The notes under the pieces are model-generated. The model had not been told where the DNA came from and searched no databases. It saw nothing but the letters and a program-made list of their open reading frames with translations. A DNA stretch of 64,000 nucleotides from Lineus longissimus (Eukaryota > Nemertea > Pilidiophora > Heteronemertea > Lineidae): contig NC_088313.1 of assembly GCF_910592395.1 (NCBI RefSeq), positions 4,588,501-4,652,500 of the forward strand, written 5' to 3'. The translations under genes were made by a program, and so were the position numbers. This document shows, piece after piece, positions 2,937-27,488 of this stretch (position 1 is its first letter; each line of letters starts with the position of its first letter).

Positions 2937-3202
2937 TAATATAATTGGCCAATTTCTTAGGCATATGTAGCGAATTCCCATGAAGATTTAAATTAGATGC
3001 TCTCGTAACCTGTTACAACTGGTCTGATTTATTAATTCAGCGCTACAACTGGTCTGATTTATTAATTGAGCGCCATTTTGAAAAACCAAAAAAAATTGTT
3101 TGTAGGATATACAATAGTTACTCTCTTTATTTCTCACCATCATTCATTATATACTCCCGCACACACGTGTATCTTAAGAGCCCCTCCTAAAGGGGGGCTT
3201 AA
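2937..3202 (+). repeat. Unit R copy 3, right end only
   Basis: About 265 bases repeating 2671-2936 almost exactly (tandem duplication of the unit's right end, including the twice-repeated ACAACTGGTCTGATTTATTA block). It ends in the TTAA (3199-3202) used as target by the Kolobok-like element. Confidence 0.75.
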
Positions 3203-3502
3203 AGGCCATAACTCCAGGTTTTTTGCCATTTTCTGCTGTAAGACGATTTCAAAAGTGTACCTAACACTTTATACAATACAGAAAACCAAATGCAATTAGC
3301 TCCATCCATTTTGAAGATATAGCCAATTATGTGTTTGACAACTTGATTACCTAATCAGGCTAGCAACTGGCTTGTTAGAGCCAGGCGGCGGGTTCAGCAA
3401 AAGTTGTGATGTAGATCAGGTCATCTGTACATGTCATGCAATCATAAAAGCAGGAGGGCCTTAATTAATTATGCACACCTGGAAGTAATGTGTTTCATTC
3501 AC

Positions 3503-3536
3503 TATGGTGTATTGTGTGGCTCCGAATTGTGTCAAG
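3503..3536 (+). pseudogene. THAP-domain ORF, first 11 codons
   Basis: Start codon and first residues (MVYCVAPNCVK) of a THAP C2CH zinc finger, including the first two zinc cysteines. The reading frame is cut here by the LTR element and resumes at 17220 beyond it. The same protein is uninterrupted on the minus strand at 26878-27183. Confidence 0.8.
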
Positions 3537-4211
3537 TGTTCCCAGCGTCCCTGAGGTTAACGAACATCCCTCAAGAGACCTGGTGCCGTAGACCGATGCT
3601 GAACTTGCAGACATACTAACTTAGCAGAGAATGAACTCGGAAGGCAGGAGTAATCATATAATAGTTTATTTGTACTTACTTGATATAGGAGTTTCTGATC
3701 TAGCTAGACACTATTGGATGCAAGCTGGGCCGCCCAAGAGAGGTAAGAGAGAGAGAGAGCCGGCGTGCCCAGTACTTAAATACCCAGATGCCAAGTCACG
3801 AGCTCAGAGTCCAGGATTACGGAAGACGAATACTAATTAAAGGAGCAACCCGGTCCAGGATACGAGGCCGTCCAGAGAGAGACCTAACAATGTCAAGTGC
3901 CTCCCCCTGGTAGCTGAAGACCATTGGGAAGCTATGATTGGACGCCTCGTACCAGGTGACTATGATCGGAACGTTAACTGTGCCAAGATCACCGGCCATC
4001 CCTTTAAGGACTTACTGCTGTCACCGCAATCCTCCGACTTGGAACCGCGTGACTCGAACCCCTGGACTCACTGCTTATATTGTATAATAATATTAATCAA
4101 GGCTAAGAACAATGACGAATAGCCTGATAAGGCACGTTCGGTAGACTTCAAACGAATTCAGTTAACCCTATGAACACCGTGAAGCCTACCTTTTAAGGGC
4201 TTCACGGTACA
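3537..4211 (-). repeat. 3' LTR of the 13.7-kb retroelement
   Basis: 675 bases, starting TG and ending CA, apparently identical to 16545-17219. Since the genes are on the minus strand, this is the 3' LTR. On that strand it starts with an 11-bp-stem hairpin (4176-4186 pairing with 4198-4208), has a TATA-like stretch near 4080 and an AATAAA at 3665-3670. The left flank ends CAAG (3533-3536), and CAAG also follows the other LTR. The short ORFs inside are LTR sequence, not genes. Confidence 0.95.
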
Positions 4212-4226
4212 TGCCCCCCTCGAAAA
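4212..4226 (-). promoter_or_regulatory. Polypurine tract
   Basis: On the minus strand the sequence before the 3' LTR is a purine run of six G ending CA, directly against the LTR's TG. This is the expected plus-strand primer site. A small perfect hairpin (CAGTCTG/CAGACTG) lies next to it at about 4230-4247. Confidence 0.75.
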
Positions 4227-7200
4227 AGACCAGTCTGTCCCCAGACTGAGAAAGTTTTGCCCGATAATGAAAATATTGTGAGTGGCAGATCGCCAGTGAC
4301 CCCAATGACAAACGGTGTTACAGTGTGACCCGTAGTAAATAAAAAGAGATAAGGTACATTGATAATCAGTTGTGATAAAAACCCGAACGACCTTCCAACG
4401 CCGCTCACGCCTCGCCATGTTCTTTCTCCATTTTTACCCAGCAATTATATATGGTAAGTACAATTTTCTGATTCTCTATGTACTGCATCCTTGTTAAAAT
4501 TAATCACTTATACCGAAAATGTTGCGTTCACCCCTGATAAATTCATAATATATATACATGTAAGTGACAACTCACGAGAAAGGAAACAAACAAATCTCGG
4601 CTCACATTCGGCCTGTGCAAGACACTGAAACGTCGAAAAAAAAATTATTGGTTGAACTCAATGTTACTTGCCGTACCCAGGCCTATCACTTTCAGGTAAC
4701 CGTCCTTCAACCCGGCATTATTATTAAAATATGCTTATCATTTCTATCCTTTTCACCGTAATGAAGCGGACCCTTAACACATGACAGCGTAACCTCACCA
4801 ACACTGGGTAAAGTAACCCAAAGTACTCAATCAACTGGAGTTTGACAAGAAAAACTACCAAAAAACCAAAAAAAACTAATAAATATTGTGCTACTATTCC
4901 GTAATTCTTTTTACCCCAAATCTAACCCGAATCAGGTCCATTACCCTAGACAAACCGGTCTATGAAAAATATAAAACGCCGTAAATATTCTTCGGTTTGC
5001 CCATTGTATGGAATATCCAGGACCATGACTCAGCTGTGTCATAACTAAGCCAGTGCAATCACGCAATCTGCACTAATGGTCCGGTTACTTCTTGCCTGAA
5101 ACCTACTCCGTTCCCTTGAACGAGAGTAAAAATATCCTCTAGAGTCTGCCTTCTAGAACTTTGCTTTCATACTCCTAGAGGATATCGCTACAATAGCGCG
5201 TAGCCCATGCTATGAACACTCTTAAAGACAAACCACTGATTTTACAACTATATATTAAAAAAAACAAACTCCGATGAGGCCCCGAATCAGGTGTTAAGGA
5301 CGAAACAGACACAATTCTTGCCTTGGCTATCCCCATGAATAGCCAAGAAACCAGTGCGTAGATATCAGGAAACGGTCAGGTGGAACAACCGCCCGACCTC
5401 CTCCTGTAGGGTCCAGCATACATTCCCTAGCTGGTTTCTTCCTCTACACCCAAAAAAACTATCCTGCTAATAGGTACTCGCTTGACCCCAATGGCCACAA
5501 CAATCCAATTAAATAAAAGTAATGGTGACACAATGATTCACCAGCCTGTGCTGAAAGCAAGGATGCACCCTGAGTAGCGACATATGAAAAAACATTATCA
5601 ACGACCAAGGCCTATAAAAGATATTAGTTGTCTTTGCTTCAACCATTAGGAGGCAACGTAAGCGACAATCAATAATAAACGATAATGCCGTGCCTCCACG
5701 CAAATTAACAACAAACCACTACATTGACTACTTAATCAACACGAGACATGCAATTGCCCCGAACATCCCTACGCCCCTTGGCTTGCAAAATAAACCACAG
5801 GTAAATCTGCCCCGAGAGTTGTTACCATAAAGATTTGAATACGATATATCAATGCATATAGCATATACTAAAGATAACTTCAAACTTAATGCATAGCCTA
5901 CAAGTATCAAGGCTCTGAGTTAATCTGACCTAGAAGGCACAAATTTAGTGAACCTTACGCAAGATGTCTTTATATGTCCCTATATGGTTATCAGTATGAC
6001 ACAATAGTGTGTTATATTTACAAATTCGATTAAACTAGCAAACCACCAAACATATAGTACTATCAAAAGTCATAAGTTACTCTCGAAAGATATCTTTCAT
6101 TCAAAAAAAATATTTATCAACACGGTCACCGTCATCAGTGTCTTGTAATGCACAAACAAAACAAAAACCTCCGGCATGCTTAATCCGCGACAATCTATGC
6201 TGAAAAAACCCAAAACAATTATAATTACCTTCAGTTTCATTAAGATCTAACTACTATACACCTTACAGGGATCAGAAACCATAATTTTGCATGCACCCTC
6301 CGCAAGTCGGAAAAGGATGACTTTGGTCCAAACAAAATAATCTGAGTTGCATCCTCCGCAAGTCGGAAAAGATGACTTTGGTCCTGACAATCATTTGCTT
6401 CCATCACAGGAAATATAAATGTTTATATAATCAAAGTACAGTGTCTATTTCTGAAGAATGTTCGGTAATCCAAACCCACCGTAGTCGTCATATTCCGTTT
6501 GACAATCCGCACGTACCCGTATGACGATGCATCCGTAACAGACAAGAGCTTTCCAACGTAGAGTATAACAGCTTCCCAACGTAGTGTATAAGACTTATAA
6601 CGAGTAATTCGTTGCAGCAGCGACTGAATGTTGAAGATGGATCCTCCTCGCCGTGACCAAGATGAACCCTGGATATTGGACGCTCCCCGCTTTCAGATTC
6701 GGAAGGAGCATTTGATTGAGAAAAAGACGAAAAGGACCGACCGGTGAGCCAGGAATGACCAAGTAAGAGAAACGGTGCCGTGGTGTCCGAAAATATTTAC
6801 TTTAAAACGGGTTGAAATTTTGGTTACATTTTTGGTGTAGGTTTGACAGCAAAAAAAAAATTAGAAAATTGTTATTTTTAAAACGAAGATGACGCCCAGC
6901 CCGTGAACACCCTTGTTTACCACTGTTACCATTATTACGATATTTCCCAAAAACAATTACGACGCGGCGAACCCGCTTGCTATGTTAATCCAGACCAAAA
7001 TAACTATCACCCTTCCATCTCACCACGTAGCCATCACACAGTGATGATAATATAACAGGCTTTGGTTCCTCAGCGACCAAATGACCAGCCGTCGCTAGTC
7101 ACCAGGAGCTGTTCCCCATATTTGCCTTTAAAATTTGATACGCTGGTCAATGCATAACTGTGGCCTCATTTTGCTTTGGACCGAGGCTGAAGCTTTCACT

Positions 7201-7351
7201 CAGGAAAAACAGTCCAGCTGTTTCCCAATCTTATGCTTCGCCACTTGTCCTTATTTACCGCTCGATGCCCAGTATGTATAATATATATATGATATATGGT
7301 GTGACGCTAAACGTATCCTAGGAATGTGGAGAATGGACAGAGCGTACTGCT
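4227..7351 (-). other. Long 3' non-coding region of the retroelement
   Basis: About 3.1 kb between the RING ORF and the polypurine tract with no convincing minus-strand ORF. It holds an inverted repeat (ATATCCTCTAGAG at about 5132 with CTCCTAGAGGATATC at about 5175), a near-perfect ~60-base direct repeat (about 6292-6387, core CTCCGCAAGTCGGAAAA), a shorter repeat near 6550-6585 (TTCC[C]AACGTAG), and a possible plus-strand exon at 6637-6743. Such length suggests regulatory RNA structure or a lost gene. Confidence 0.6.
6637..6747 (+). other. Possible antisense exon/small ORF (36 aa)
   Basis: On the strand opposite to all the element's genes, an ATG opens 36 charged codons (MDPPRRDQDEPW... rich in K, R, D, E). 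It closes at a TGA that is part of a good splice donor (CCG|GTGAGC at 6743/6744). A TATAA-like stretch (TATAAGACTTATAACG, about 6587-6602) lies 35-50 bases upstream. An acceptor-like tract ending GTGTAG occurs near 6840. It could be the first exon of an antisense transcript, or chance. I recognise no homologue. Confidence 0.25.
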
Positions 7352-8434
7352 CTAAAAGTCGACATCATCGATGTCGACCAGAGGAGGCATTTCCTCCTCC
7401 TCTGTGGGAGTAAAGTGATCTAGCAAGCTGGCAAGCCACGTGTATGGTCGAAAATTTAAATGTTTGATAAATGCCCTAGGTGGGGCGGGACAATTTTTTT
7501 TAATTTCCTCGCGCTTTGCAAGGACCTGGGGGTCCGACCTCCCCGCTATCACAGCGAGAGGACCATGCCTTCTATAACCGAAATGGGTACCACAGGCCGG
7601 ACACAATAGCTTTGTGACAGTGTTAAACATGTGCCAAACTAATACGATCACGCATCTGACATGCATTACGTGATGGCAACATGGCATAAAATATACCGAG
7701 GGCTGAGGATGGTAAAACGACTCCAACTCCGTATACGATTTGTCGCACCGTGCGCAGGTCTTTCCATATAAAAATTTTTGAAATAGATGAGCTCGGTGTC
7801 TAGTACGCCGGCGAAGCTCTTTGTTTAGAGAAGTTGCCACGAAAGGGCCTTTACCCACTCTCGAACGATCTACTAACCCAAAAATATGAGAGCGAGACAT
7901 CCCCCCTTTTTCTGAAATGTATTTTACAATAGCTGGTGTAAACGAGTTGTGAACCCCGAACAAATTTAGTAGACGGGTCAAAATGGACGCCGCCGTTTGT
8001 AAGGTCAGATGCTGCTGCACGGCTTGCCGAATCATGTCAAAATGTTGACATTGGAGTTGGGTGTACGGCCACTCCGAAACCCTACGGTAACAAACGTTGA
8101 TGCTACCCTCTATATATTGCCGGAAGACAGTCTGCTGTAATGAGGGGCTGTCTAATATGAACGCCGCCTCAAAATAGTCATATAGAGGATAGCGGCCAAA
8201 GTCTGTGGGAAGATGTAGCAAATACTTCAACAGTTGTATAAAAACGACACCGGACACCACCGCCGGCCAATCGTGATGGGTTAGGTCCCCCACGGACTGG
8301 CCCTGCAAACCCCTAAAACGATAGACCGCGCTTACATAGCCGGAAGCGCGGCAAAGAGTTTCTTGCTGCTTTTTCGTTAGCTCGGGTAGGCTCACCCGTG
8401 GTCCTCTTGCCGTCGTGGAGCCATTAGTCGCCAT
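7352..8434 (-). CDS. RING-H2 finger accessory protein of the retroelement
   Basis: 360 residues. A RING-H2 finger lies at residues 227-281: C227-x2-C230, C253-x-H255-x2-H258-x2-C261, then C278-P-A-C281. The spacing fits zinc-binding E3 ubiquitin ligases. The ~225 residues before it look helical and match no family I know, a basic patch (RRRTRHRAH, about 208-216) precedes the finger, and the C-terminus is acidic (EEEE, DIDDVDF). The ATG directly follows a strong 3' splice site on the minus strand (CTTTCTTTTCTTCCTCAG, AG at 8436-8435), so it is probably made from its own spliced mRNA, downstream of env as in complex retroviruses. Function inferred: ubiquitin ligation acting on host factors or on viral proteins. 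A captured host gene is possible. Confidence 0.8.
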   Translation of the reverse strand: MATNGSTTARGPRVSLPELTKKQQETLCRASGYVSAVYRFRGLQGQSVGDLTHHDWPAVVSGVVFIQLLKYLLHLPTDFGRYPLYDYFEAAFILDSPSLQQTVFRQYIEGSINVCYRRVSEWPYTQLQCQHFDMIRQAVQQHLTLQTAASILTRLLNLFGVHNSFTPAIVKYISEKGGMSRSHIFGLVDRSRVGKGPFVATSLNKELRRRTRHRAHLFQKFLYGKTCARCDKSYTELESFYHPQPSVYFMPCCHHVMHVRCVIVLVWHMFNTVTKLLCPACGTHFGYRRHGPLAVIAGRSDPQVLAKREEIKKNCPAPPRAFIKHLNFRPYTWLASLLDHFTPTEEEEMPPLVDIDDVDF

Positions 8435-8532
8435 CTGAGGAAGAAAAGAAAGCTGTTATACACTTGGTCTTATTTAACGATAAACGAAGCCCCCTGACGA
8501 AATGAAGCTTGTCGGCACCCATATTTGTTTTA

Positions 8533-11181
8533 TCAGTCAGCGAGAGGAAGAGATGGGTACAACGGAGCCGTGGGGCCGACCCCTCTGTCATGTATTTTTG
8601 GTTCAGGTTGCCTAAGATTGGACATGCTGGTTGCCCTATCCACTAAGATGGCATTTACAAAACTGGTTGGACCCAAGAGGTCATTTTTCTCGCAGAACAT
8701 AACTAGGAATTTGGAGTTAACGCGGTAGTACAAACGGACTTGACACGTGCTCCGTATTATGTGTCGTATTTTCCACTGGAAAACGCCAAGCTCCATTTCG
8801 GTGGGCAACCTACATTGACTAGAACATTCCCAGTCCAACGCTAGTTTCAAAGAGAGGCACGTTGGATGCACGGTAATCCCAACATCTTTAATTGAAGAAA
8901 TTGTCTTATTTGTCAACCGGGAAGTCTGAGGCACTTCTAGGAACTTTGACATGTGACCGGAACTAAATTCGATCACCAAACAGTTTGGACTTATGCCCAA
9001 CAAATAAGAGATAAGCACTTCTGCATATTTAAGAAAAAGGATTAGTAAGATTACACCTGTTATCGCCACGAGAGACGACAAAAGTTTTATCTCAATGTTT
9101 ACTGCCCCAATGGCCTGTTCAACCTGTTGAGTAAAATTTCCTATATTTTCAGAATCGAGGTGAAATTGGTTAAGAGCTTGAACTTGGGTTTCTTCAGACC
9201 CCGCTTGTAAACTCCAGAAAGTAGCATTTATTGGACCTGCATCAGCCGTCGGTACCTGGGCAAAGGTAGCAACCGTGAAAATAGCTGGCGCCCGCACACC
9301 ACACGTTTTACACAGAAGGTAGGTAGCCACTACGGCGGCATATACCGCTAAAACCGAGTTAACTACCTGAAACGAGATACCAAACCCTGGTATCACACTA
9401 CCCCCGCCTACCGTTGCATGAGACTGAGTGGCCAGAAAATCTGCCTTAGTAGCAAATGTGCTGGCCCGTTCGGTACCACTGTCCAGGGTGGCTTTTAAAG
9501 AAGCCTGAAACTGTTGATCTTTGGCGGCAATATTTGTCCAATTCATCTCGTTCAGGTTAATGGGCGGTATCTCGATGGAAGGTGGAGTTTTCAAGGGCAC
9601 CGAGTTTACGGCATATTTCATAACATCCTCAAGTGGATATGCATGATAAAGCAAGGGCAAATTTATGGGATGTTCATAAACCATCTTACCCTGGCTGGCT
9701 GCATCACACGTAGAAACCTGTGCGGGTATATGAAACTTTTTGGACGACAATCCGCATGCACAACCAAGGGTCACGATCGCAAACTTGCTCGCTGGCACTG
9801 GAACGGTTGGTTTGCCCGCACAATTTTTCTGCCAAACGGGTTCGTCTCCCGAGGCCAAGTATTTTCCAGGGGCTAATTGTATGGCGCCATTTAAAAGACC
9901 ACCTTCCTTTTGGTACCGGATATCACAAAACTTAATGGTGTCCGGGACATTTGAAAAATAAATTGCCGACACACAAGAAGGTAGTGTCTTGCTTCGCAGT
10001 GCTACCGCCATATTACATCGAGTTTGATCGCCATCCTGCTCACAGGACGCCGTATATTCGTCATACCATTCATTAACAAATTCACCATCCAGAGTTACCC
10101 CAAAATACCTGGGTAAATTCATCACCTTCGATGTTGCGGTGGAAGAATGATTAAGAGGAACCGGTAACGAGATTACCGAATACAGTTGCACCAATGATTC
10201 AGATGACGCTAGCGGCACCTTTACCGAAACAAATATGTTGTTATCATCCCTGCTAAAAAGGATGTTTTTGATATCATAATAATACAAAGGATCAGGGTGA
10301 ACCACATGAAACCGAGGGTATTGCGCGGCTAATCCCTGACTTATGGTCGTCAAAACGGTCTGTAAACTGTCTCTGGGGACAAAAGCTAATGGTAAATAAC
10401 CTTGGACCAAGGTCCTTACCGCTAACACCCAGTTATATAATTCGGATTCCACATCGGCTAGATAACCCAGAGTGACCACCGATTCTGTTATCAAGGCGCC
10501 TAAGGCCGAAATTGCTGCCTCAACATCTCTAAGTTTAATTGCCATGGTGTTTAACTGCATATTTAATATTTTAATTTGGTTATGATTATCCAATACACCG
10601 TCCATAGCATTTGTCAATCTTGCTGAAACCACTTTCATTACGGAATGCATTTCCTTTTCAAAAGATTTTATCTCATTTGTATTTAGATCAACTTGCTGTG
10701 TTACGAGTGCCACATGGTTTTTGAATTTATTGAAATCTGCTTCCGTTACTAGGCCGAAAATGGAAGATGCTACTTGACCTAAACCGCCAAGAATAGCCCT
10801 TTTCGATCGCGGTTGCGGTTTACCCCATTTGACGGGCATGAGCTCCTGGGCTTCATTCACCCACTTTTGTACCCGTTGTACCATTTCCGTACGCCTTGTT
10901 CTCAAATTTTGGGCTGCTTCCCGAATTCGCTTGCACATTAAACCGGACGTAGTAGCGTCCGTGACACAATCATAAAATTTAATCTCCGAAACCAGGTTAG
11001 ATAGGTTTGGGATAGGAATTTGAAAAGTCTGAAACCATGTGGACTCGGCCACGTTGATCATAGATTTCTTTTTGAACACCACCCCAAAGGAAGCGCGAAG
11101 GACGACATCGTCCTCCAGAACTACCAGTGGTGGCAGCCCTAGTACTAGGCCCAAAAATAAAAGAAAACACCGAGCCTTCAT
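8533..11181 (-). CDS. env: Envelope fusion glycoprotein, baculovirus-F/errantivirus type
   Basis: 882 residues from the first ATG (11181); the frame is open upstream to 11238 but without another ATG. Numbering from that ATG: signal peptide about 1-22; furin site RSKR at 125-128, followed at once by a glycine-rich fusion peptide (AILGGLGQVASSIFG); then a long heptad-rich region to about 230; TM segment about 601-624; a second TM about 700-728; and a ~150-residue cysteine-containing tail. Several N-x-S/T sites are present. The cleavage site plus fusion-peptide pattern is that of class I F proteins of baculoviruses and errantiviruses. Two good 3' splice sites lie 65-95 bases upstream (TTTTCCTTTCAG at about 11275, CTTATCGTTTCAG at about 11247), fitting a spliced subgenomic env mRNA. 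The second TM and long tail are odd. No frame breaks are seen. Confidence 0.85.
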   Translation of the reverse strand: MKARCFLLFLGLVLGLPPLVVLEDDVVLRASFGVVFKKKSMINVAESTWFQTFQIPIPNLSNLVSEIKFYDCVTDATTSGLMCKRIREAAQNLRTRRTEMVQRVQKWVNEAQELMPVKWGKPQPRSKRAILGGLGQVASSIFGLVTEADFNKFKNHVALVTQQVDLNTNEIKSFEKEMHSVMKVVSARLTNAMDGVLDNHNQIKILNMQLNTMAIKLRDVEAAISALGALITESVVTLGYLADVESELYNWVLAVRTLVQGYLPLAFVPRDSLQTVLTTISQGLAAQYPRFHVVHPDPLYYYDIKNILFSRDDNNIFVSVKVPLASSESLVQLYSVISLPVPLNHSSTATSKVMNLPRYFGVTLDGEFVNEWYDEYTASCEQDGDQTRCNMAVALRSKTLPSCVSAIYFSNVPDTIKFCDIRYQKEGGLLNGAIQLAPGKYLASGDEPVWQKNCAGKPTVPVPASKFAIVTLGCACGLSSKKFHIPAQVSTCDAASQGKMVYEHPINLPLLYHAYPLEDVMKYAVNSVPLKTPPSIEIPPINLNEMNWTNIAAKDQQFQASLKATLDSGTERASTFATKADFLATQSHATVGGGSVIPGFGISFQVVNSVLAVYAAVVATYLLCKTCGVRAPAIFTVATFAQVPTADAGPINATFWSLQAGSEETQVQALNQFHLDSENIGNFTQQVEQAIGAVNIEIKLLSSLVAITGVILLILFLKYAEVLISYLLGISPNCLVIEFSSGHMSKFLEVPQTSRLTNKTISSIKDVGITVHPTCLSLKLALDWECSSQCRLPTEMELGVFQWKIRHIIRSTCQVRLYYRVNSKFLVMFCEKNDLLGPTSFVNAILVDRATSMSNLRQPEPKIHDRGVGPTAPLYPSLPLAD

Positions 11182-11245
11182 ACCTTTAAGAAACTGGTCA
11201 GGAGTGCGTTTAAGAATTGACTTCAGCAAAACCGACAAATGGTAA

Positions 11246-11290
11246 TCTGAAACGATAAGGAAGAGTTAAAGTTTCTGAAAGGAAAACAGC
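11246..11290 (-). promoter_or_regulatory. Tandem 3' splice sites for env mRNA
   Basis: Read on the minus strand, two pyrimidine-rich tracts each end in TTTCAG (exon starts near 11274 and 11246) in the gap between the pol stop and the env ATG. A candidate donor is GTAAGT at 16687-16682 inside the 5' LTR. This is inferred from sequence only. Confidence 0.5.
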
Positions 11291-11308
11291 GTGCCGCGTT
11301 TGGAAACT

Positions 11309-14300
11309 CTACCAGTTCCCCTTTTTCCCCTTTTTAATCTTCCTAGGTTGATCTAGGAACGATTGAACCAAACCTGGGGTAACAACGGCCGATTGGTCTA
11401 CCCAAGAGTTATGTTTGGGCCCATAATCTTTCCATTTCACCAGGAACTGTAATTTCCCCTTTCGTTCTCTCTTTTTGACGATTCCATCAATTTCATATAT
11501 GTCATCAGTTTCAGACTCACTACTCGCAGCCTTGCTGCCAGCTTCCCCTTGTACGGAAGAAGAAGCCTGCTTACCCACCTCGTCTGCCTGGAGTTCAGTT
11601 TGGTGACCCCCGTCCGTCTCTGCATGAAGAGGCGCAGGTTCCCGATGGTTGAAAGGAATGTCTTCCTCAGCAAGAGGTTCACCCTCACAGGGAATGTCAG
11701 AAGGTTCAAAGGTACGCATATCATCCCAGAAATAACGCTTCATCCTATCCGGATGCATAAGATTTTTCAGGGTTGTATTTTGCATAGTTTTTAAACGAAA
11801 GGCCTTCGGGCGCACCTCTTCCATAACATAATATGGACCCACCCACTTTGAAGAAAGACATTTCGAGAGCCCTTTTGACGCCTTCTGACGAGGGGTCAGC
11901 AGTAAACACAAATCGCCCGGTTTCCAACCCGGTTCAACAGCCTTCTGATCGAAGCGCTGTTTCATGTATTTACGTGACTGCTGTAGCCTCAACCGTGCCT
12001 CCTCTTGTGCAACTTCCAAACCTTTCAGGAGGGTTTTGATATAACTGTCAACGCTTTTTACCGCCGAGAGCTCAGGAGATAAGGCTATATCTAGGGGAGT
12101 TACTGGCATCCGTCCAAACATTAAGAAATAGGGGATCTGATTCGTGGCGTTGGTTATACTCGTATTGTATGCGAATGCAAGTGGAGCTAGGAAAAGAGGC
12201 CAGTCACGTTGGTCAGGGGAAACATATTTGGCTAACGCCGCAGCAATCCATTTGTTGGAAACCTCAGCTAACCCTTGCACCTGGGGCATGTAACTGCATC
12301 CTACTGATTTAACAATGTTGCACAATTGACAAAACTGAGTCATATTCTTACCAGTGAAATAGGCAGCGCCATCAGTGAGTATTTTCTTGGGTGGAAAAAA
12401 CTTACAGACAATTTCATTAAACAATATATCTACAATTTCCTCCGATTGAACTGACTTCAAGGGGAAAAGCCAACAGTATTTTGAAAAATGATCCATGATA
12501 ACCAGACAGTGAAGGTATCCTTGGGATGATTTCGTGAGAGGTCCTTTTACATCAATCACTAAAACCTCCCCTAATTGCGATGTTTGCATGGGAAGCAATG
12601 GGGCCTTAGGATGTTTAATCGGAAAGGACCGAGCTTGACACGGGAGGCAAGTTTTACACCATTCTTGTATAGTTTCTTTCATATTTTTCCAGAAATACTT
12701 GTACCGAATGCGGTCATACGTTTTTGCTGCCCCCATGTGCGCCGCCATCGGCTGATCATGAGAAAATTCGAGAATCTGCGGAACCAGTTTCGAAGGGACA
12801 ACCGTAAGATGCAAGATTTTCGGACCGTGTTTAGTGGGAAGCTGTACAATTCGTTTTAATACCTGCTCCACTAGGGCATATTTATCAGCTTCTTTCTCTA
12901 CCCTTGATGCAATGGACCTATCTTGAGGCAACGTGCCGTGTTCCAAATACTGGATTATGTGTCTCAATTCAGGATCTTCGTGTTGTGCCGCCTGTAACGA
13001 ATCTAAGGAAACTGGATATTTACTGCTGTCAGGAGTTTCCAAACTATTTACCCCCGGCTCATTTGGCCTGGACAACAGGTCGGCCAAAGGGATGGTAGTG
13101 CCTTCTGCATGGAGTATATCAAATGAATATTGCTGTATGGCTAGACTCATTCGCATTAATTTTGGTGAGTCTGTTCTTTTTTGTAGCAGATAGGTAAGAG
13201 CTTTGTGATCCGTTTTTACTAAAAAATGAGTTCCTGCTAGGAACATTTTGAAATGGCGAAGTCCCTGTACCAACGCAAACATTTCCTTTTCTGTAATACA
13301 CCAATGTGACTGAGTTTTAGTAAGAGTTTGACTATAATAGCCCAACGGGTGTCGTTTGTTTTCTTTGACCTGATAGAGAACGGCCCCAATGGCAAAATCA
13401 CTGCTGTCGGAGATAAGCAGGAAAGGCAACGACTCGTCCGGGTGATTCAATAGAATAGGCTCAGTGGTTAAAGCTGTTTTCAACGTCTCGAAGGCCCGCT
13501 CACAGCGCTCATCCCAAACAAACTCCACATCCTTACGCAATAGTGCCGTCATAGGGTATGCAATTTTAGAAAAGTCTTTAATGTATGACCTATAGAACGA
13601 CGCAGCTCCCAGGAAGCGTTTGATATCTTTTACCGTTTTAGGCTTTGCAAAGTTGAGAATTTTCTCTACGTTTTGCGGATTTGGTTTTGTGCCCTCGGCA
13701 GATAGTATCTTACCTAGGAATTTAACTGACCCCTTGGCGAATACGCACTTAACTGGGTGCATCTTGAGATTAGCCTCACGAAACCTTTGAAAGACACGGT
13801 CCAAATGAGCCATATGCTCGTCAAACGTCGCAGAGTGAATTAAAATGTCATCCAGATAAGCATTTGCAAAACTGGAAAGACCTGATAAGACTAAGGACAT
13901 TACTTTCTGAAATTGGTGAGGAGCTGATTTGATGCCAAAAGGCAACCTACTATACGAAAATTGACCAAACGGACAAATTGCCGTCGCAACGTCTGAACTT
14001 CTGGGCGTAAGCCCGAGTTGATGGTAGCCCGCTTTCAAATCTAGCGTTGTGAAGTACTTGGGATTTCCCGCATTCCCTAACTGCGTTAAATGCGAGGCGA
14101 TGGGGAGGGGGAATCGTAGGAAGGGTAATTTTTTGTTTAACTCTCTAAAATCACATACGACCCTATAAGTCCCATCGGGTTTGGCTACCAGGATCATAGG
14201 CGAACCAAATTCTGAGTTAGTTGGATGGAGGAGGCCTGCTTTTACAAGTTTGCCGACTTCTTGTTCTAAAATCTGACGACGTTTCGGTGATAACTGATAA

Positions 14301-15565
14301 GGCTTGGAAATAACTGGTTCCGTTCCCTTAAATCCCAAGTCTACTAACCCTTTTGTGCAGAGGCCTAAGTCCGACAAGTCCACGGCAAATAAATCTTGAT
14401 TAGCGGTTAGGAATTCATGTAATTGTTTCTTTTGGTCTTCCGTCACCTCAGATTTTGATAAGTCAATTAGATCAATCGCTTTAGGCTTTTGAGTCGGTGC
14501 TTCTGGTCGTTGAAAAGGATGAAAAGAATCAGTCGCATTTAACAAGTCGTCTTCCTCCATTATTAAATCCACTGAAGCTACGGCCGGCAATGGCGACAAA
14601 ATGGCCACCTCAGTGCCTGCCCGCAAATGTATTGGTTGCGATAGGACATTGATAAGTTTTAACGGCACGCGGTCATCAGTGACCTTTACTACGCTGTTTG
14701 GTATATAGATGTGAGAACTGCTAAATAAGTTTGGTTTTTCCTGCAATACACCTTCATAGCCCTCTGGCTTATCGTGACTAAGTGGAACAAAGATTACCGT
14801 ATCTGACCTCGGAGCTAGAGTATATGACTGATCTAACAAGATAGTTGTGGAATTATCCAAAGATATACTGCCTATGAATGGAACAGCTGGTTCGTTTGGC
14901 ATTCTTAAGGTGGCATTTCCAAAATCTAAAGTAACCTGGAACCCATTTAGAAAATTTCGGCCTAAGATAATCTGTTGCGTAGCTAACTGGCTTGGCAAAA
15001 TGTAAAAAGGTACCTCGATGCGGGTTCGGCCTACTAACAGCGGAATTTTAATCAACCCTTTTAGTTTTAGGGAAGTACCATTTACTGCCGCTGCTTGGGA
15101 GAACAGCCCTTTAGTCACTGGTAACCGTTGTAAGATTGGATCAGATTGTATAACAGTTTCACTAATTATGCTGATGGCAGCGCCACTGTCAACCAATGCT
15201 AAATGAGATTTTGATCCAACCTGGGCTTGAATCAATGAGGTTACCGAAGCCAAAACAGGAGGGTTGCCACTAGCAAGATCCCAATCACATTCCGGTGCAG
15301 TTGGAAGTACTTGGAAATCTTCCTCAGACAGAGCATTACCCCCCGAGTCAAGTGCATTTTTCACCACCCGCGCTTTTATTTCCGATGAACTAGTACTAGA
15401 AACAGTTTGAGACTTTTCCTCTTCTAACGTCACGGCTTTCTGTAACTCGTCCTTTTGAGTTGGCATTTTTAGTTCCACCAAACCATTATCCCCTGTAATC
15501 GAACCATTGAGAACAGCGTCATCTTTTACTGTTGAACTTAACTTCAGTGTACTAGAGTCTGACAT
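11309..15565 (-). CDS. pol: Pol polyprotein: protease, RT, RNase H, integrase, chromodomain
   Basis: 1418 residues. Aspartic protease with DSGA at 126-129. Reverse transcriptase about 425-640 with LPFG (541-544) and YLDD (570-573). RNase H about 715-830 (acidic sites D720, E759, D786 region, TDHK at 785-788). Integrase: H936, H943, C970, C973 zinc knuckle, then D1005, D1065, E1101 (D-59-D-35-E), then a GPY/F motif at 1243-1245. Chromodomain 1356-1405 with cage residues Y1357, W1378, W1388 and core FLVKWKDYG. All catalytic residues are present. Chromodomains in this position are thought to steer integration to histone-marked chromatin. The ATG lies 5 bases beyond the upstream ORF's stop, in the -1 frame, across a run of five G, so translation may be by reinitiation or frameshift. 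Confidence 0.95.
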   Translation of the reverse strand: MSDSSTLKLSSTVKDDAVLNGSITGDNGLVELKMPTQKDELQKAVTLEEEKSQTVSSTSSSEIKARVVKNALDSGGNALSEEDFQVLPTAPECDWDLASGNPPVLASVTSLIQAQVGSKSHLALVDSGAAISIISETVIQSDPILQRLPVTKGLFSQAAAVNGTSLKLKGLIKIPLLVGRTRIEVPFYILPSQLATQQIILGRNFLNGFQVTLDFGNATLRMPNEPAVPFIGSISLDNSTTILLDQSYTLAPRSDTVIFVPLSHDKPEGYEGVLQEKPNLFSSSHIYIPNSVVKVTDDRVPLKLINVLSQPIHLRAGTEVAILSPLPAVASVDLIMEEDDLLNATDSFHPFQRPEAPTQKPKAIDLIDLSKSEVTEDQKKQLHEFLTANQDLFAVDLSDLGLCTKGLVDLGFKGTEPVISKPYQLSPKRRQILEQEVGKLVKAGLLHPTNSEFGSPMILVAKPDGTYRVVCDFRELNKKLPFLRFPLPIASHLTQLGNAGNPKYFTTLDLKAGYHQLGLTPRSSDVATAICPFGQFSYSRLPFGIKSAPHQFQKVMSLVLSGLSSFANAYLDDILIHSATFDEHMAHLDRVFQRFREANLKMHPVKCVFAKGSVKFLGKILSAEGTKPNPQNVEKILNFAKPKTVKDIKRFLGAASFYRSYIKDFSKIAYPMTALLRKDVEFVWDERCERAFETLKTALTTEPILLNHPDESLPFLLISDSSDFAIGAVLYQVKENKRHPLGYYSQTLTKTQSHWCITEKEMFALVQGLRHFKMFLAGTHFLVKTDHKALTYLLQKRTDSPKLMRMSLAIQQYSFDILHAEGTTIPLADLLSRPNEPGVNSLETPDSSKYPVSLDSLQAAQHEDPELRHIIQYLEHGTLPQDRSIASRVEKEADKYALVEQVLKRIVQLPTKHGPKILHLTVVPSKLVPQILEFSHDQPMAAHMGAAKTYDRIRYKYFWKNMKETIQEWCKTCLPCQARSFPIKHPKAPLLPMQTSQLGEVLVIDVKGPLTKSSQGYLHCLVIMDHFSKYCWLFPLKSVQSEEIVDILFNEIVCKFFPPKKILTDGAAYFTGKNMTQFCQLCNIVKSVGCSYMPQVQGLAEVSNKWIAAALAKYVSPDQRDWPLFLAPLAFAYNTSITNATNQIPYFLMFGRMPVTPLDIALSPELSAVKSVDSYIKTLLKGLEVAQEEARLRLQQSRKYMKQRFDQKAVEPGWKPGDLCLLLTPRQKASKGLSKCLSSKWVGPYYVMEEVRPKAFRLKTMQNTTLKNLMHPDRMKRYFWDDMRTFEPSDIPCEGEPLAEEDIPFNHREPAPLHAETDGGHQTELQADEVGKQASSSVQGEAGSKAASSESETDDIYEIDGIVKKRERKGKLQFLVKWKDYGPKHNSWVDQSAVVTPGLVQSFLDQPRKIKKGKKGNW

Positions 15566-15570
15566 TCCCC

Positions 15571-16314
15571 CTATTGCAACCGTTTCTTCAAGCTGATCTG
15601 TTTGCGAACCCTCTTTTGAAACCCTACTATACTGCGCTTTGACCCCAGGACCGTCCTTCGGAGGGTCCTTAATCTCTTGGATGTTGGGTTCGTCGGGTAG
15701 GTCGTTGTTTGCACGCTGTCCTTCATGCCTAACCAGGGTTCAAGTTTAAGCTCAGAAAGTTTTACGCTACTGCCAGTAAATTCGCGGAATGACTCTCTAA
15801 TATCCTCCCACATTGAGCGGGAGCTTGGTACCTTCCCCCCATTGCCGTTTGAACTTTCCGTAAAGGAGTTAGAGGCCATTTTGTCGATGCTTTGATTGAC
15901 TTTAGGAGTGGACGTTACGAAATCAACGTCAGTTTGAGTTTGGAAATTTTTTGATGGGATTTTTAAATCCGTTTGAGTGTGAACTGGTACTTTTTGGATT
16001 GGACTGTCCGGAAACGTTAAGTGTAAATGCTCATTAATATTGGAACCCGCCCAACCGTCGTCAAAATACTCGTCTGCTTCCTCAAATTTTACGTGCTTAG
16101 TTTGTGTGCCTTCTTCAGGCTGAGAGTCTTCTAGAATGGAACCAAAAGATGGAAACTTTTCGTCGTCGATACCGCTTTCCGTTCTAAAATGCTTAAATAT
16201 GCGATCAAGCTGACGGGACGTTGCTTGTGGGGTCCAACGTTGTTGGCCTAAAGGTTCTGGATTGTCTGGCTCGTATACGATGCGGTTTCTCAAATTATGA
16301 CGTATCTGCGGCAT
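15571..16314 (-). CDS. gag: Gag-position protein, no recognisable capsid or zinc knuckle
   Basis: 247 residues, first ORF after the 5' LTR. The N-terminal half is acidic and low in hydrophobic residues. The last ~45 residues are strongly basic (KRLRTLRRTVLGSKRS... QKRVRKQISLKKRLQ), which could bind RNA. I see neither a capsid major homology region nor CCHC knuckles, and it is much shorter than typical Ty3/gypsy Gag (about 300-500). It could be a divergent Gag with a basic nucleocapsid tail, or an internally deleted one. Position is the main argument for calling it Gag. Confidence 0.6.
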   Translation of the reverse strand: MPQIRHNLRNRIVYEPDNPEPLGQQRWTPQATSRQLDRIFKHFRTESGIDDEKFPSFGSILEDSQPEEGTQTKHVKFEEADEYFDDGWAGSNINEHLHLTFPDSPIQKVPVHTQTDLKIPSKNFQTQTDVDFVTSTPKVNQSIDKMASNSFTESSNGNGGKVPSSRSMWEDIRESFREFTGSSVKLSELKLEPWLGMKDSVQTTTYPTNPTSKRLRTLRRTVLGSKRSIVGFQKRVRKQISLKKRLQ

Positions 16315-16526
16315 ACTAATGCTTGCACATATTAGATTATCTTATTACAACTTAATAGCCCTATTGCTGATTGCCGACATAAATTTGTATCGGTTAATCG
16401 TGATAAAAGGCTCCCGTAAATGAATTGAAACTTAAAACGCTAGGCTCTGTAATGCACCCCTGAATCATTCGGGCAAGGTAGACTTCATCCGCTACTTTAT
16501 GAAAGTCTGTCCACAAGGTTCAGCAG

Positions 16527-16544
16527 AACAAGCTCTGACTACCA
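16527..16544 (-). promoter_or_regulatory. Primer binding site
   Basis: Immediately inside the 5' LTR, the minus strand reads TGGTAGTCAGAGCTTGTT. Starting with TGG (complement of tRNA CCA) is as expected. I could not match the rest to a particular tRNA. Confidence 0.6.
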
Positions 16545-17219
16545 TGTTCCCAGCGTCCCTGAGGTTAACGAACATCCCTCAAGAGACCTGGTGCCGTAGA
16601 CCGATGCTGAACTTGCAGACATACTAACTTAGCAGAGAATGAACTCGGAAGGCAGGAGTAATCATATAATAGTTTATTTGTACTTACTTGATATAGGAGT
16701 TTCTGATCTAGCTAGACACTATTGGATGCAAGCTGGGCCGCCCAAGAGAGGTAAGAGAGAGAGAGAGCCGGCGTGCCCAGTACTTAAATACCCAGATGCC
16801 AAGTCACGAGCTCAGAGTCCAGGATTACGGAAGACGAATACTAATTAAAGGAGCAACCCGGTCCAGGATACGAGGCCGTCCAGAGAGAGACCTAACAATG
16901 TCAAGTGCCTCCCCCTGGTAGCTGAAGACCATTGGGAAGCTATGATTGGACGCCTCGTACCAGGTGACTATGATCGGAACGTTAACTGTGCCAAGATCAC
17001 CGGCCATCCCTTTAAGGACTTACTGCTGTCACCGCAATCCTCCGACTTGGAACCGCGTGACTCGAACCCCTGGACTCACTGCTTATATTGTATAATAATA
17101 TTAATCAAGGCTAAGAACAATGACGAATAGCCTGATAAGGCACGTTCGGTAGACTTCAAACGAATTCAGTTAACCCTATGAACACCGTGAAGCCTACCTT
17201 TTAAGGGCTTCACGGTACA
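16545..17219 (-). repeat. 5' LTR of the 13.7-kb retroelement
   Basis: Identical by eye to 3537-4211. It contains the element's promoter side: on the minus strand a TATAAG stretch near 17088, AATAAA at 16673-16678, and a consensus donor GTAAGT at 16687-16682. The CAAG duplication follows at 17220-17223. Confidence 0.95.
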
Positions 17220-17526
17220 CAAGGATAGTACAAAGAACAATCGAATAACGGATGGGACCCATTTTCATGAATTTCCAAAGCCAGTTGAACAAGAGAGGAG
17301 GAAGCTGTGGATTCGGAAGTGCAAACGTTTGGAGTGTTGGAAGCCTGGGCCTTCGGCCAAACTTTGCAGTGATCACTTTATCGATACGGATTATCACATG
17401 AAGCCGGATATCTGCATCCAACTGAATATTAAATGCCACTTGTTAAAAACAGCTGTTCCATCTGTATTCGATTTGACCAACCCCACTTACATGCGACAGC
17501 CTCCAAAGCCAAGGAACGTTCGTTAG
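17220..17526 (+). pseudogene. THAP-domain ORF, remainder beyond the LTR element
   Basis: Continues the ORF opened at 3503. It contains the conserved W, the C-x2-H pair (CSDHF) and the AVP motif that close a THAP C2CH finger, then about 25 residues and a stop at 17524-17526. In this copy the protein is split by 13.7 kb, so it is dead. Copy 2 encodes the finger intact. Confidence 0.75.
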
Positions 17527-18127
17527 CCAAAAAACGTAAACATCAAGAAGTGAGTTGAACACTATTTAATGATTTATACACTGCTGATGCACACAACACT
17601 CATACTACCCAAATGGCACATGTCATCCACTGTACAGTGGCTACACAACCATGTCAATTGCATTTAATGCCCGAGGCTGCTGAGGTCGGTTGTTATACAT
17701 AATGTGTAGGCCCTATTGGGGCCTGTGATACCGCATAGTGTCTTCTTGTGTTCCAGCCATAGCAAGGTGATTATGATCTAGTGATATTAATGGCTCGAAC
17801 ATGTACGGCTCAACGTTTAAATATCCTTCTGTATCGACCAAAACATCCTCAAATTCACTGCTCTCACTCTCTGAACTGTATGCGGAAGCCATCTTGCTTT
17901 GTTCTGACTGGCCTGATCTACGTCATCAAAAAATCCCTAGCGGCCACATGTGGAACTAATCTAAAGTTGTGTGTGGTGGGAAATTCAAATAGTTTAAAAT
18001 TGAAAATTGAAATAACTAAATAATGACTTTATTATTAGAATTTTTTTAATGTCTGGGATCTTGTTTTTTTAACCCTCAACATATTTCATGAGTATCAAGC
18101 ATGTTTTCAAACCTAGATATATGGCCT
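17527..18127. other. Right part of Kolobok-like copy 1
   Basis: Non-coding apart from a truncated minus-strand ORF start (ATG near 17893, reading MASAYSSESESSEFED... and PYMFEP). It is the counterpart of the small ORF at 26331-26483 in copy 2 and is cut short here by an internal deletion near 17768. Confidence 0.6.
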
Positions 18128-18130
18128 TTA

Positions 18131-18507
18131 ATATGTAAAGTCAAGGACTTGGTGAGCCCCCCTTTAGGTCGGGGGAGCTTTTACCCAGTACAATGGAGGG
18201 GACCCCCCCCCAAACCCCCATGTTGGGACCATTCATAGTTCCTTCCGACACATTTTTGTTTTGGTAATGTAATACATTGTGATTGTCCTTATTCACGGGA
18301 ATCGGGCGTTTCCAGTGATATACGACACAAATGGGTTGCCCTCATGCATTCACTTTGGAAACGCATTTTAAAATAGATGTTACGTCCTGTTAATGGGGCA
18401 CGTCATCATCGCGTACATTTGGGAAAAACTCCCTAACGAGACCGGAGCAGACGGCTGAAAGTAGTTTAATTATTGGCCGCTAGGGTTCAGAATGTCGCTC
18501 ACCCGAA
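18131..18507 (+). repeat. Unit R copy 4, left end
   Basis: Starts with the family's GTAAAGTCAAGGACTTGG right after the Kolobok-like TTAA, and breaks off after CGCTCACCCGAAT. The last ~134 bases recur at 22087-22219 on the far side of the next insertions. Confidence 0.75.
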
Positions 18508-22086: not shown

Positions 22087-22757
22087 AAGATGTTACGTCC
22101 TGTTGATGGGGCACGTCATCATCGCGTACATTTGGGAAAAACTCCCTAACGAGACCGGAGCAGACGGCTGAAAGTAGTTTACTTATTGGCCGCTAGGGTG
22201 CAGTATGTCGCTCACCCGAATTTTTCACGCAACTTTTGCTAAATAGAGCTAGTTCTAGTTTGTGATTCATTTTGATACTTCAAATTTGGGCAGTAGACCA
22301 ATATAACTTAGTCGTCAGTGTGGTTTTAAGCTGGAAAAACGTATTTGTTTTTCTTAAAGTGCCTTTTTTGGACGGGTGTGTGCGATTGTTTTGTTTATGT
22401 CACGTGACCTCGACCATGTCGACACAAAATTGAAATAAACCACCCTTTTCTGTCATTATTAAGGACGAATATTTCTCTAATAAAAATATTAATATAATTG
22501 GCCAATTTCTTAGGCAGCGAATTCCCATGAAGATTTAAATTAATTTTAATTTAATTTAAATTCATTTCAACCAATGGGATAGCAACCACCACCGGAAGAT
22601 CGCGGAGAAATCGTAAACTCAACGGATTTAATTCAGAAAAAAACAAAAAAAAATTGTTTGTAGGATATACAATAGTTACTCTCTTTATTTCTCATCATCA
22701 TTCATTATATACTCCCGCACACACGTGTATCTAAAGAGCCCCTCCTAAAGGGGGGCT
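22087..22757 (+). repeat. Unit R copy 5
   Basis: Unit lacking the left ~370 bases but with an intact right end (CCCCTCCTAA, GGGGGG, CTTAA). It joins head to tail with the next unit at 22758. Confidence 0.75.
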
Positions 22758-26091: not shown

Positions 26092-26330
26092 TTAAAGGCC
26101 ATATATCAAGGTTTGAAAACATGCTTGATACTCATGAAATATGTTGAGGGTTAAAAAAACAAGATCCCAGACATTAAAAAAATTCTAATAATAAAGTCAT
26201 TATTTAGTTATTTCAATTTTCAATTTTAAACTATTTGAATTTCCCACCACACACAACTTTAGATTAGTTCCACATGTGGCCGCTAGGGATTTTTTGATGA
26301 CGTAGATCAGGTCAGTCAGAACAAAGCAAG

Positions 26331-26483
26331 ATGGCTTCCGCATACAGTTCAGAGAGTGAGAGCAGTGAATTTGAGGATGTTTTGGTCGATACAGAAGGAT
26401 ATTTAACCGTTGAGCTGTACATGTTCGAGCCATTAATATCACTAGATCGTAATGAGAGTGATCATTCGGACGAAAGTGATTAG
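26331..26483 (+). CDS. Small acidic ORF of the Kolobok-like element (50 aa)
   Basis: MASAYSSESESSEFED..., then YMFEP and an acidic end. Short acidic N-termini with a [PL]YMFEP-like motif occur in transposon-encoded proteins, but I cannot name the family. In copy 1 the same ORF is truncated and reads PYMFEP, so L here is probably the change. It is likely the first exon or remnant of a second transposon protein. Confidence 0.4.
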   Translation: MASAYSSESESSEFEDVLVDTEGYLTVELYMFEPLISLDRNESDHSDESD

Positions 26484-26877
26484 AATTTGTGGTTAATCAA
26501 TTTGCATGGCAGACCTGCCGATATAGCAAAGAAGACATTGATAGACGGTTGCAGATGCATAACATGTATGATTTTTGAACAGACTAATGTTGCACAATAT
26601 TGTTTCGCCTCGTCAGTGTTGTATCGCCAGTTATGTCATGACGCTGAACTACTATTGAAAAGTGACGGTATTATGCACAATCATCTTGACGTGACGATAT
26701 AATGCCGTGCAACGTTAGATAGGCCTAGATGTCAGATGACAATAATCTGTCATTGACAGTGGCTGTCACTGACACTGACCTGTGTCGCTGTCACCTTGCT
26801 ATGGCTGGAACACAAGAAGACACTATGCGGTATCACAGGCCCCAATGGGGCCTACACATTATGTATAACAACCGACC

Positions 26878-27183
26878 TCAGCAGCCTCGGGCATTAAATG
26901 CAATTGACATGGTTGGAACAGCTGTTTTTAACAAGTGGCATTTAATATTCAGTTGGATGCAGATATCCGGCTTCATGTGATAATCCGTATCGATAAAGTG
27001 ATCACTGCAAAGTTTGGCCGAAGGCCCAGGCTTCCAACACTCCAAACGTTTGCACTTCCGAATCCACAGCTTCCTCCTCTCTCGTTCAACTGGCTTTGGA
27101 AATTCATGAAAATGGGTCCCATCCGTCATTCGATTGTTCTTTGTGCTAGCCTTGACACAATTCGGAGCCACACAATACACCAT
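26878..27183 (-). CDS. THAP-domain protein fragment (101 aa)
   Basis: Complete THAP zinc finger, residues 1-90: C4-x4-C9, invariant P30, W40, C59-x2-H62, F63 and AVP at 88-90. THAP fingers bind DNA and form the N-terminal DNA-binding part of P-element, Kolobok and related transposases. After residue 90 the frame leaves the homologous copy because of a ~195-base deletion and soon stops, so only the DNA-binding domain could be made. Confidence 0.75.
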   Translation of the reverse strand: MVYCVAPNCVKASTKNNRMTDGTHFHEFPKPVERERRKLWIRKCKRLECWKPGPSAKLCSDHFIDTDYHMKPDICIQLNIKCHLLKTAVPTMSIAFNARGC

Positions 27184-27488
27184 AGTGAATGAAACACATT
27201 ACTTCCAGGTGTGCATAATTAATTAAGGCCCTCCTGCTTTTATGATTGCATGACATGTACAGATGACCTGATCTACATCACAACTTTTGCTGAACCCGCC
27301 GCCTGGCTCTAACAAGCCAGTTGCTAGCCTGATCAGGTAATCAAGTTGTCAAACACATAATTGGCTATATCTTCAAAATGGATGGAGCTAATTGCATTTG
27401 GTTTTCTGTATTGTATAAAGTGTTAGGTACACTTTTGAAATCGTCTTACAGCAGAAAATGGCAAAAAACCTTGATATATGACCTTTAA

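What the first reader, a model, noticed from the sequence alone, without database searches (positions are those of the whole stretch)
3537..17219. Intact env-bearing chromodomain retroelement with an accessory gene
Identical-looking 675-bp LTRs, a clean CAAG duplication, primer site, polypurine tract and four open ORFs make this a recent, possibly active endogenous retrovirus-like element. Chromodomain Ty3/gypsy elements usually lack env, and env-bearing errantivirus-type elements usually lack a chromodomain. Having both, plus a RING gene and a 3.1-kb 3' non-coding region, is a combination I do not know as a described group.
Basis: partly seen in the sequence, partly recalled or inferred. Interest (0 to 1): 0.88.

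Follow-up and report, generated by a model that had tools for sequence, protein, structure and literature searches.

The report
Gag-deleted ribbon-worm endogenous retrovirus with chromodomain
A young virus-like jumping element in a ribbon worm combines a chromatin-reading integrase, a baculovirus-type envelope protein and a RING-like gene, and although this copy has lost the capsid part of its gag gene, related elements in the same genome show that the combination is a real lineage.

Summary
The element is real: identical 675-bp LTRs, a CAAG duplication, and a near-identical unoccupied site about 10 kb away. The host matches Lineus longissimus chromosome 6. Pol ends in a chromodomain. Env has a furin site and fusion-peptide motif; 7 of 10 relatives' env ORFs, one 42% identical, exceed the Baculo_F cut-off. 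A RING-like ORF follows env.

"Intact" is wrong. A junction at 15713/15714 marks a deletion of about 2.7 kb that removes nearly all of the capsid domain. Among nine genomic matches to a junction probe only this copy spans it.

"Chance composite" fails. Seven Lineus elements (six families) with chromodomain and homologous env form a 100/100 clade; four of the six families have RING-like ORFs after env. Kinship with classical chromoviruses is unresolved (AU p 0.176). The best predicted splice acceptor abuts the RING start. Within 17 env ORFs or pieces, late-domain motifs occur only at C-termini (6 of 6), suggesting that Env helps budding; this is inferred. The closest survey (Chary and Hayashi 2025) could not be read.

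The parts
3533..3536 (.). target-site duplication CAAG, left copy
   Evidence: single copy at the paralogous empty site
17220..17223 (.). target-site duplication CAAG, right copy
16545..17219 (-). 5' LTR, 675 bp, TATAA at LTR position 133, AATAAA at 542
3537..4211 (-). 3' LTR, identical to the 5' LTR
16532..16544 (-). primer-binding-site-like TGGTAGTCAGAGC directly after the 5' LTR (resembles an initiator-tRNA-Met complement with one extra base; recalled, tRNA not tested)
4212..4222 (-). polypurine tract ending GAGGGGGGCA
16688..16688 (-). best splice-donor-like site between the 5' LTR start and 15500 (CAA/GTAAGT), inside the LTR just before AATAAA
   Evidence: own consensus weights
15571..16314 (-). 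ORF1, 247 aa: about 200 residues of Gag N-terminus plus an out-of-frame tail after the deletion junction; no capsid or zinc-knuckle match
15713..15714 (-). deletion junction (2-bp overlap of the two matches); about 2.7 kb of gag and upstream pol frame missing
11309..15565 (-). pol ORF, 1418 aa
14927..15235 (-). aspartyl protease domain (pol 111-213)
13709..14185 (-). reverse transcriptase domain (pol 461-619)
   Evidence: Ty3 match E 7.8e-102
13127..13435 (-). RNase H domain (pol 711-813)
12284..12799 (-). integrase zinc-binding and core domains (pol 923-1094)
11351..11497 (-). chromodomain (pol 1357-1405)
11246..11248 (-). predicted splice acceptor for env mRNA (second-best acceptor score on the sense strand; score not above the antisense maximum)
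8533..11238 (-). env ORF, 901 aa; likely start ATG at 11181 followed by a signal-peptide-like stretch
   Evidence: relatives hit Baculo_F
10744..10809 (-). furin site RSKR and fusion-peptide-like AILGGLGQVASSIFGLVT
9310..9366 (-). hydrophobic segment 1 (env 625-643)
8989..9090 (-). hydrophobic segment 2 (env 717-750), in the C-terminal part that most distant env matches do not align with
8548..8574 (-). Env C-terminal late-domain motifs PTAP and LYPSL
8434..8436 (-). predicted splice acceptor whose first exon base is the A of the RING ATG; best acceptor score in the element
7352..8434 (-). accessory ORF, 360 aa, RING-like Cys/His cluster in its C-terminal half
7592..7756 (-). RING-like Cys/His cluster (residues 227-281)
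4212..7351 (-). 3.1-kb 3' region without a long open frame
3199..3536 (.). left part of the repeat into which the element inserted
17220..18131 (.). right part of that repeat; THAP domain at 17239-17469 (residues 17-93 of the frame 17191-17523, E 1.4e-11)
26092..27488 (-). second copy of that repeat without the insertion (empty site)

Best explanation
This is a recently inserted but Gag-deleted copy of an endogenous Ty3/gypsy-type retrovirus of the ribbon worm Lineus longissimus. It belongs to a lineage that combines a chromodomain integrase with a baculovirus-F-type envelope and, in several families, a RING-like accessory gene. Proposed working of the lineage: (1) the 5' LTR drives a genomic RNA translated into Gag and Pol; (2) splicing from a donor near the 5' end to acceptors before env and at the RING start makes the Env and RING messages; (3) Env passes the secretory pathway, is cut by a furin-like protease and exposes a fusion peptide; (4) late-domain motifs on the Env tail recruit ESCRT and help budding, perhaps with ubiquitin supplied by the RING protein; (5) after entry and reverse transcription the chromodomain guides integration to methylated-histone chromatin. 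Domains, insertion, gene order, deletion and clade are shown; steps 1 to 5 are inferred from anatomy. The window copy has lost nearly all of its capsid domain, so it should not be able to make particles by itself. It probably either arose by a reverse-transcription deletion and was packaged by Gag of other copies, or lost gag after inserting.
For: Insertion and boundaries. Pol domains and chromodomain, with aromatic residues at the expected places (Y, W, Y; one search read against HP1 as recalled). Env type: 7 of 10 relatives' env ORFs scanned exceed the Baculo_F cut-off, including the 42%-identical L013. R-x-[KR]-R followed by [LI]FG in 9 of 17 env ORFs or pieces. Same gene order in a second family. 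Clade of seven elements at 100/100. RING-like ORFs after env in the window family, family B (L013, by tblastn), L023 and L027; a Cys/His pattern search found 3 sense ORFs in 2 of 20 loci and 0 antisense. The splice acceptor ranked first of all positions abuts the RING ATG, score 15.1 against an antisense maximum of 11.6; family B has a pyrimidine tract and AG two bases before the matching RING ATG (by eye). Late motifs: 6 in 17 env ORFs or pieces, all 6 in the last 30 residues, in 5 ORFs; 0 of 2000 whole-protein shuffles and 0 of 2000 tail-only shuffles reach 5. Deletion.
Against: The window Env itself has no Baculo_F hit; its type rests on relatives, and 3 of 10 env ORFs scanned (L026, L036, L037) had none. 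The RING match is below the Pfam cut-off in every protein scanned, L013's ORF fails the pattern used, and its identity is only 22%. Late motifs are absent in 12 of 17 env ORFs or pieces, family B included; two of the 12 pieces (L022a, L023a) lack the C-terminus, and L023 and L027 are sister elements, so the five are not independent. Late motifs are not confined to Env: PTAP also stands upstream of the protease in pol, and PSAP in family-B Gag and in L027's upstream ORF. The env acceptor (11.3) does not exceed the best antisense score. Window pol alone was placed differently in different trees, with a long-branch warning. Both structure models were poor (mean pLDDT 38 and 44). No RNA or protein data.
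Confidence: 0.78

Rival explanations
1. An intact, self-sufficient, currently active endogenous retrovirus.
For: Identical LTRs, clean TSD, long open pol, env and RING frames.
Against: Gag ends at the start of the capsid domain; another family copy keeps the missing stretch, and its Gag has capsid and zinc-knuckle matches.
Confidence: 0.04
2. A chance composite in which env and RING sit next to a chromodomain element by nested insertion.
For: The region is rich in nested repeats.
Against: All genes lie between one LTR pair. A copy on contig C14 (TSD ATTG, read from flanks) has the same pol end, env and RING order, and a 42%-identical family repeats it.
Confidence: 0.02
3. A true chromovirus that captured an F-type env, so that chromodomain and pol descend together with the classical plant-fungal-vertebrate chromoviruses.
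For: Chromodomain follows a GPY-like module as in chromoviruses. Holding the Lineus clade with classical chromovirus-like rows is not rejected: p 0.176; window pol alone p 0.119.
Against: The best trees place them apart, and chromodomain labels need 5 changes on the 105-row tree.
Confidence: 0.35
4. An ancient errantivirus-type env lineage in which some branches gained the chromodomain, or kept it while others lost it.
For: Env of the Baculo_F kind is shared by elements with a Chromo match and by L032 without one; passages report env-carrying gypsy as pre-bilaterian.
Against: No named errantivirus pol was in the tree, so direct kinship was not tested.
Confidence: 0.5
5. The short ORF1 is a novel capsid-less Gag and the lineage does without a capsid.
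For: ORF1 has no Pfam or PDB match.
Against: Another copy of the family and family B carry capsid domains; ORF1 is a truncation product.
Confidence: 0.01

Closest known systems
Errantivirus-type env-carrying gypsy elements (Chary and Hayashi 2025; seen only through passages of PMC13172572 and PMC12859917)
   Same: Ty3/gypsy pol plus baculovirus-F-type env; LTR provirus in an animal; reported as widespread in metazoans.
   Different: Chromodomain on integrase, RING-like accessory ORF, Env late-domain tail and a long 3' region. Whether that survey already includes such members could not be checked.
Chromoviruses (chromodomain Ty3/gypsy; passages of PMC2774666)
   Same: Chromodomain at the C-terminus of integrase.
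   Different: F-type env and RING-like ORF; tree position outside the classical clade, though not significantly.
Bdelloid rotifer Juno/Vesta/TelKA elements (passages of PMC5408684)
   Same: Extra ORF3, including env-like ORFs, in LTR elements of an invertebrate.
   Different: The passage states that no chromodomain was found after GPY/F in any lineage.
Spumaretroviruses (foamy viruses; recalled, listings of PMC7828637 and PMC3705263 only)
   Same: As an analogy: Env takes part in particle release and accessory genes follow env.
   Different: No kinship of pol, env or accessory genes was tested; late domains there lie in Gag (recalled).
Troyka (part 1 of 5 of PMC12440569)
   Same: Animal LTR retroelements, also reported from nemerteans.
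   Different: Troyka has CG...CG termini and 3-bp TSDs; this has TG...CA and 4 bp.

Membership tests
Metaviridae (Ty3/gypsy) | TG...CA LTRs with 4-6 bp TSD | tested here: met
   675-bp LTRs, CAAG
Metaviridae (Ty3/gypsy) | pol order PR-RT-RH-IN | tested here: met
Metaviridae (Ty3/gypsy) | Gag with capsid domain | tested here: not met
   window copy lacks it; met by another copy of the family, Ty3_capsid E 1e-7 and zf-CCHC E 4.4e-5
Chromoviruses | chromodomain at integrase C-terminus | tested here: met
   E 1.1e-10, above cut-off
Chromoviruses | pol inside the chromovirus clade | tested here: inconclusive
   ML trees place it outside; AU p 0.119 and 0.176; the reference rows are mostly unnamed proteins with Chromo domains plus one plant protein
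Errantivirus-type elements | baculovirus-F-type env | tested here: met
   through relatives only: 7 of 10 env ORFs above the Baculo_F cut-off, one 42% identical to this Env
Errantivirus-type elements | pol inside the errantivirus clade | not tested
Errantivirus-type elements | usual absence of a chromodomain (recalled) | tested here: not met
Troyka | CG...CG termini and 3-bp TSD | tested here: not met
RING E3 ligases (accessory ORF) | cross-brace Cys/His pattern and Pfam RING score | tested here: inconclusive
   pattern present and roughly kept in family B; Pfam scores below cut-off

The most novel reading that the evidence does not exclude
A diverse lineage of animal retroviruses in ribbon worms that unites chromodomain-guided integration with an F-type envelope, carries spliced RING-like accessory genes, and in several branches bears an ESCRT late domain at the extreme C-terminus of Env, so that Env helps drive particle release; Gag-deleted copies such as this one spread by using the Gag of relatives.
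Probability: 0.3. Interest if true: 0.75.

Novelty: new variant of a known kind. Interest (0 to 1): 0.57.

Why it matters
Chromodomain targeting and envelope-based infectivity are usually described for separate branches of Ty3/gypsy (recalled; in line with the passages). A clade with both, diverse within one genome, lets one ask whether infectious elements need or keep chromatin targeting, and in which order the two were gained. The placing of late-domain motifs at Env C-termini makes a concrete prediction: that budding in these elements depends in part on Env. The RING-like genes are a candidate parallel to retroviral accessory genes outside vertebrates. The copy also warns that identical LTRs and long open frames do not mean an intact element.

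Tried and rejected
Protein database searches with env and the RING ORF found no homologue at E 1e-3 (in one search only the 7996 candidates sharing most words were scored); relatives appeared only in the host genome. Three scans of viral contigs found none. PDB searches with env, RING and ORF1 gave nothing useful. Structure models of RING and ORF1 without alignments were poor and no fold search was made. I first took ORF1 as a capsid-less Gag with a basic RNA-binding tail; this was rejected when the deletion was found, as that tail is out-of-frame reading. A three-fold TQT motif in the retained Gag N-terminus (8 of 50000 shuffles have three; also in the copy on C14) suggests dynein-light-chain binding (motif recalled) but was not pursued. 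An independent chromodomain origin was considered and not claimed, because the AU tests do not reject kinship with chromoviruses. The second gypsy-like element of the window (pol parts between 24.6 and 29.4 kb) is only 24-29% identical to this pol and is not another copy. The Rfam searches found nothing. The count of gag copies in the genome was not obtained.
Full report
What was checked. The element lies on the minus strand between two LTRs that are identical over all 675 bases, with TGT...ACA ends and a CAAG duplication on both sides. A primer-site-like TGGTAGTCAGAGC follows the 5' LTR directly, and GAGGGGGGCA precedes the 3' LTR. The best proof of insertion comes from the window itself. The flanks are two parts of a repeat that encodes a THAP domain (E 1.4e-11), and another copy of that repeat, on the opposite strand at 26092-27488, lacks the element. 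The joined flanks match that copy over 532 of 537 bases with a single CAAG.

Host. The search of the window's own genome answered only after many unanswered tries. It gave 391,118,348 bases in 30 contigs, with the window at contig C6 4588501-4652500. I take the host to be this ribbon worm, perhaps in another assembly version. Contig numbers do not follow chromosome numbers to the end (C19 has the length of chr18).

Genes. Pol has protease, reverse transcriptase, RNase H, integrase and a chromodomain above the Pfam cut-off; Ty3 is the best solved relative. The env ORF has a signal-peptide-like stretch after an internal ATG, a furin site RSKR, a fusion-peptide-like stretch, a weak coiled-coil-type match and two hydrophobic segments. 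The last ORF has a RING-like C-x2-C ... C-x2-C cluster that scores below cut-off.

Not intact. ORF1 has no capsid or zinc-knuckle match and no cysteine. Another family copy on contig C14 (0 differences between its two LTRs, 2 differences from the window LTR, TSD ATTG read from the flanks) matches the window on both sides of 15713/15714 at 99.9%, but has about 2.7 kb more between. There its Gag has Ty3_capsid and Retrotrans_gag matches above cut-off, and its next frame has one zinc knuckle above cut-off and a second by pattern. A 300-base probe across the junction gave 9 rows: the window alone in full, and 8 half-matches elsewhere. Within those matches the deletion, with a 2-base overlap, is private to this copy. 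ORF1 is about 200 residues of Gag, including about 11 of the 150 residues of the capsid match, with an out-of-frame tail. A copy with 0 of 675 LTR differences but no capsid either lost gag after insertion or was carried by Gag from elsewhere; the sequence does not decide.

A lineage, not a composite. In the host genome the RING ORF gave 21 matching rows, env 54 (50 of 119 candidates scored) and the LTR 64 (40 of 91 candidates scored), of which 14 rows cover the whole LTR at 96% or more; the env and LTR counts are lower bounds. A divergent family B (L013/L045) has pol 42-48%, env 42% and RING 22% identical in the same order. I fetched 19 further env neighbourhoods and one RING neighbourhood. 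Of 15 pol-side ORFs scanned, one (L039) had no pol domain. Of the other 14, 11 have a Chromo match above cut-off (L013 and L022 among them are both family B), L037 has one below it, and L031 and L032 have none; the end of L031's pol lies in another frame and was not scanned. Seven elements with chromodomain and homologous env form a clade at 100/100; L022 and L045 are near-identical, so these are six families. RING-like ORFs follow env in four of the six: the window family, family B, L023 and L027, the last with two. All scores are below Pfam cut-offs. None was found within about 1.9 kb after env in L026 and L029 by the pattern used, which also misses family B's own ORF.

Env type. Pfam Baculo_F is above cut-off in 7 of 10 relatives' env ORFs scanned, including the 42%-identical one, and absent in L026, L036 and L037. 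The furin site followed by [LI]FG is present in 9 of 17 env ORFs or pieces. Most of the more distant env matches end before residue 670 (two reach 730-737), so residues 665-901 align mostly with near relatives, although the distant env ORFs are of similar total length.

Expression and budding. With consensus weights that I wrote from general knowledge, the best splice acceptor in the whole element has the A of the RING ATG as its first exon base (score 15.1; antisense maximum 11.6). The second best precedes env (11.3, not above the antisense maximum), and a good donor lies in the LTR just before AATAAA. Family B shows a pyrimidine tract and AG before env and two bases before the matching RING ATG (by eye). 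The Env tail ends in PTAP-LYPSL. Across 17 env ORFs or pieces from 16 elements (L021, L028, L034, L035, L038 and the C14 copy not included), late-domain patterns occur 6 times, all within the last 30 residues, in 5 ORFs. None of 2000 shuffles of whole proteins, nor of 2000 of tails alone, reaches 5. Against this, L023 and L027 are sisters, 12 of 17 ORFs or pieces have none (two of them lack the C-terminus), and such motifs also occur once in this pol upstream of the protease, in family-B Gag and in L027's upstream ORF. The motif meanings (Tsg101, ALIX) are recalled knowledge. I infer that Env helps recruit ESCRT.

Phylogenetic place. The 105-row tree and two careful trees put the element outside the clade of classical chromodomain proteins, with different neighbours for the window pol until its Lineus relatives were added. 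Holding them together is not rejected (p 0.119; p 0.176). The rows are mostly unnamed database proteins and no named errantivirus was available. So I claim a chromodomain element with an errantivirus-type env, and leave open which part was acquired.

Literature. Listings showed no paper describing chromodomain plus F-type env plus RING. Passages state that env-carrying gypsy elements are widespread and ancient in metazoans and that no chromodomain was found in the bdelloid rotifer LTR elements, some with env-like ORFs. The central survey is not held, so novelty is provisional.

Noticed in passing
L028:3023-7054 (+): A 1344-aa open frame that joins a Gag capsid region (Retrotrans_gag, Ty3_capsid) directly to an F-type Env, with no pol match in the 9-kb stretch, and ending near LYPDL: a Gag-Env fusion, probably a pol-deleted derivative.
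   Followed up: partly
L046:1-4788 (-): The pol frame of another family copy has two aspartyl-protease-like stretches (302-410 and 735-837); the first, scanned alone, is just below cut-off and lies in the part missing from the window copy.
   Followed up: partly
L026:4690-9501 (-): A DUF4326 domain (E 5.8e-17) upstream of the protease in a relative's polyprotein.
   Followed up: no
L003, L006, L010, L040 (contig C8 about 9.00 Mb): RING ORFs about 91% identical to the accessory gene with no env match in the stretches held around them.
   Followed up: partly
window 15931-16107: Three TQT motifs in the retained Gag N-terminus, a dynein-light-chain-type anchor motif as recalled.
   Followed up: partly
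window 22323-30893: A second, broken gypsy-like element with direct repeats at both ends, interrupted by the THAP repeat at 26092-27488.
   Followed up: partly
window 32707-34302 and 57648-59468: Two long open frames with a weak, below-cut-off Condensation-domain match.
   Followed up: no
P0005: A database protein 35% identical over 97% of the queried pol part, with a chromodomain; it groups weakly with the Lineus env-bearing element L032, which lacks a Chromo match (94/54), inside a supported three-row set (98/96).
   Followed up: partly
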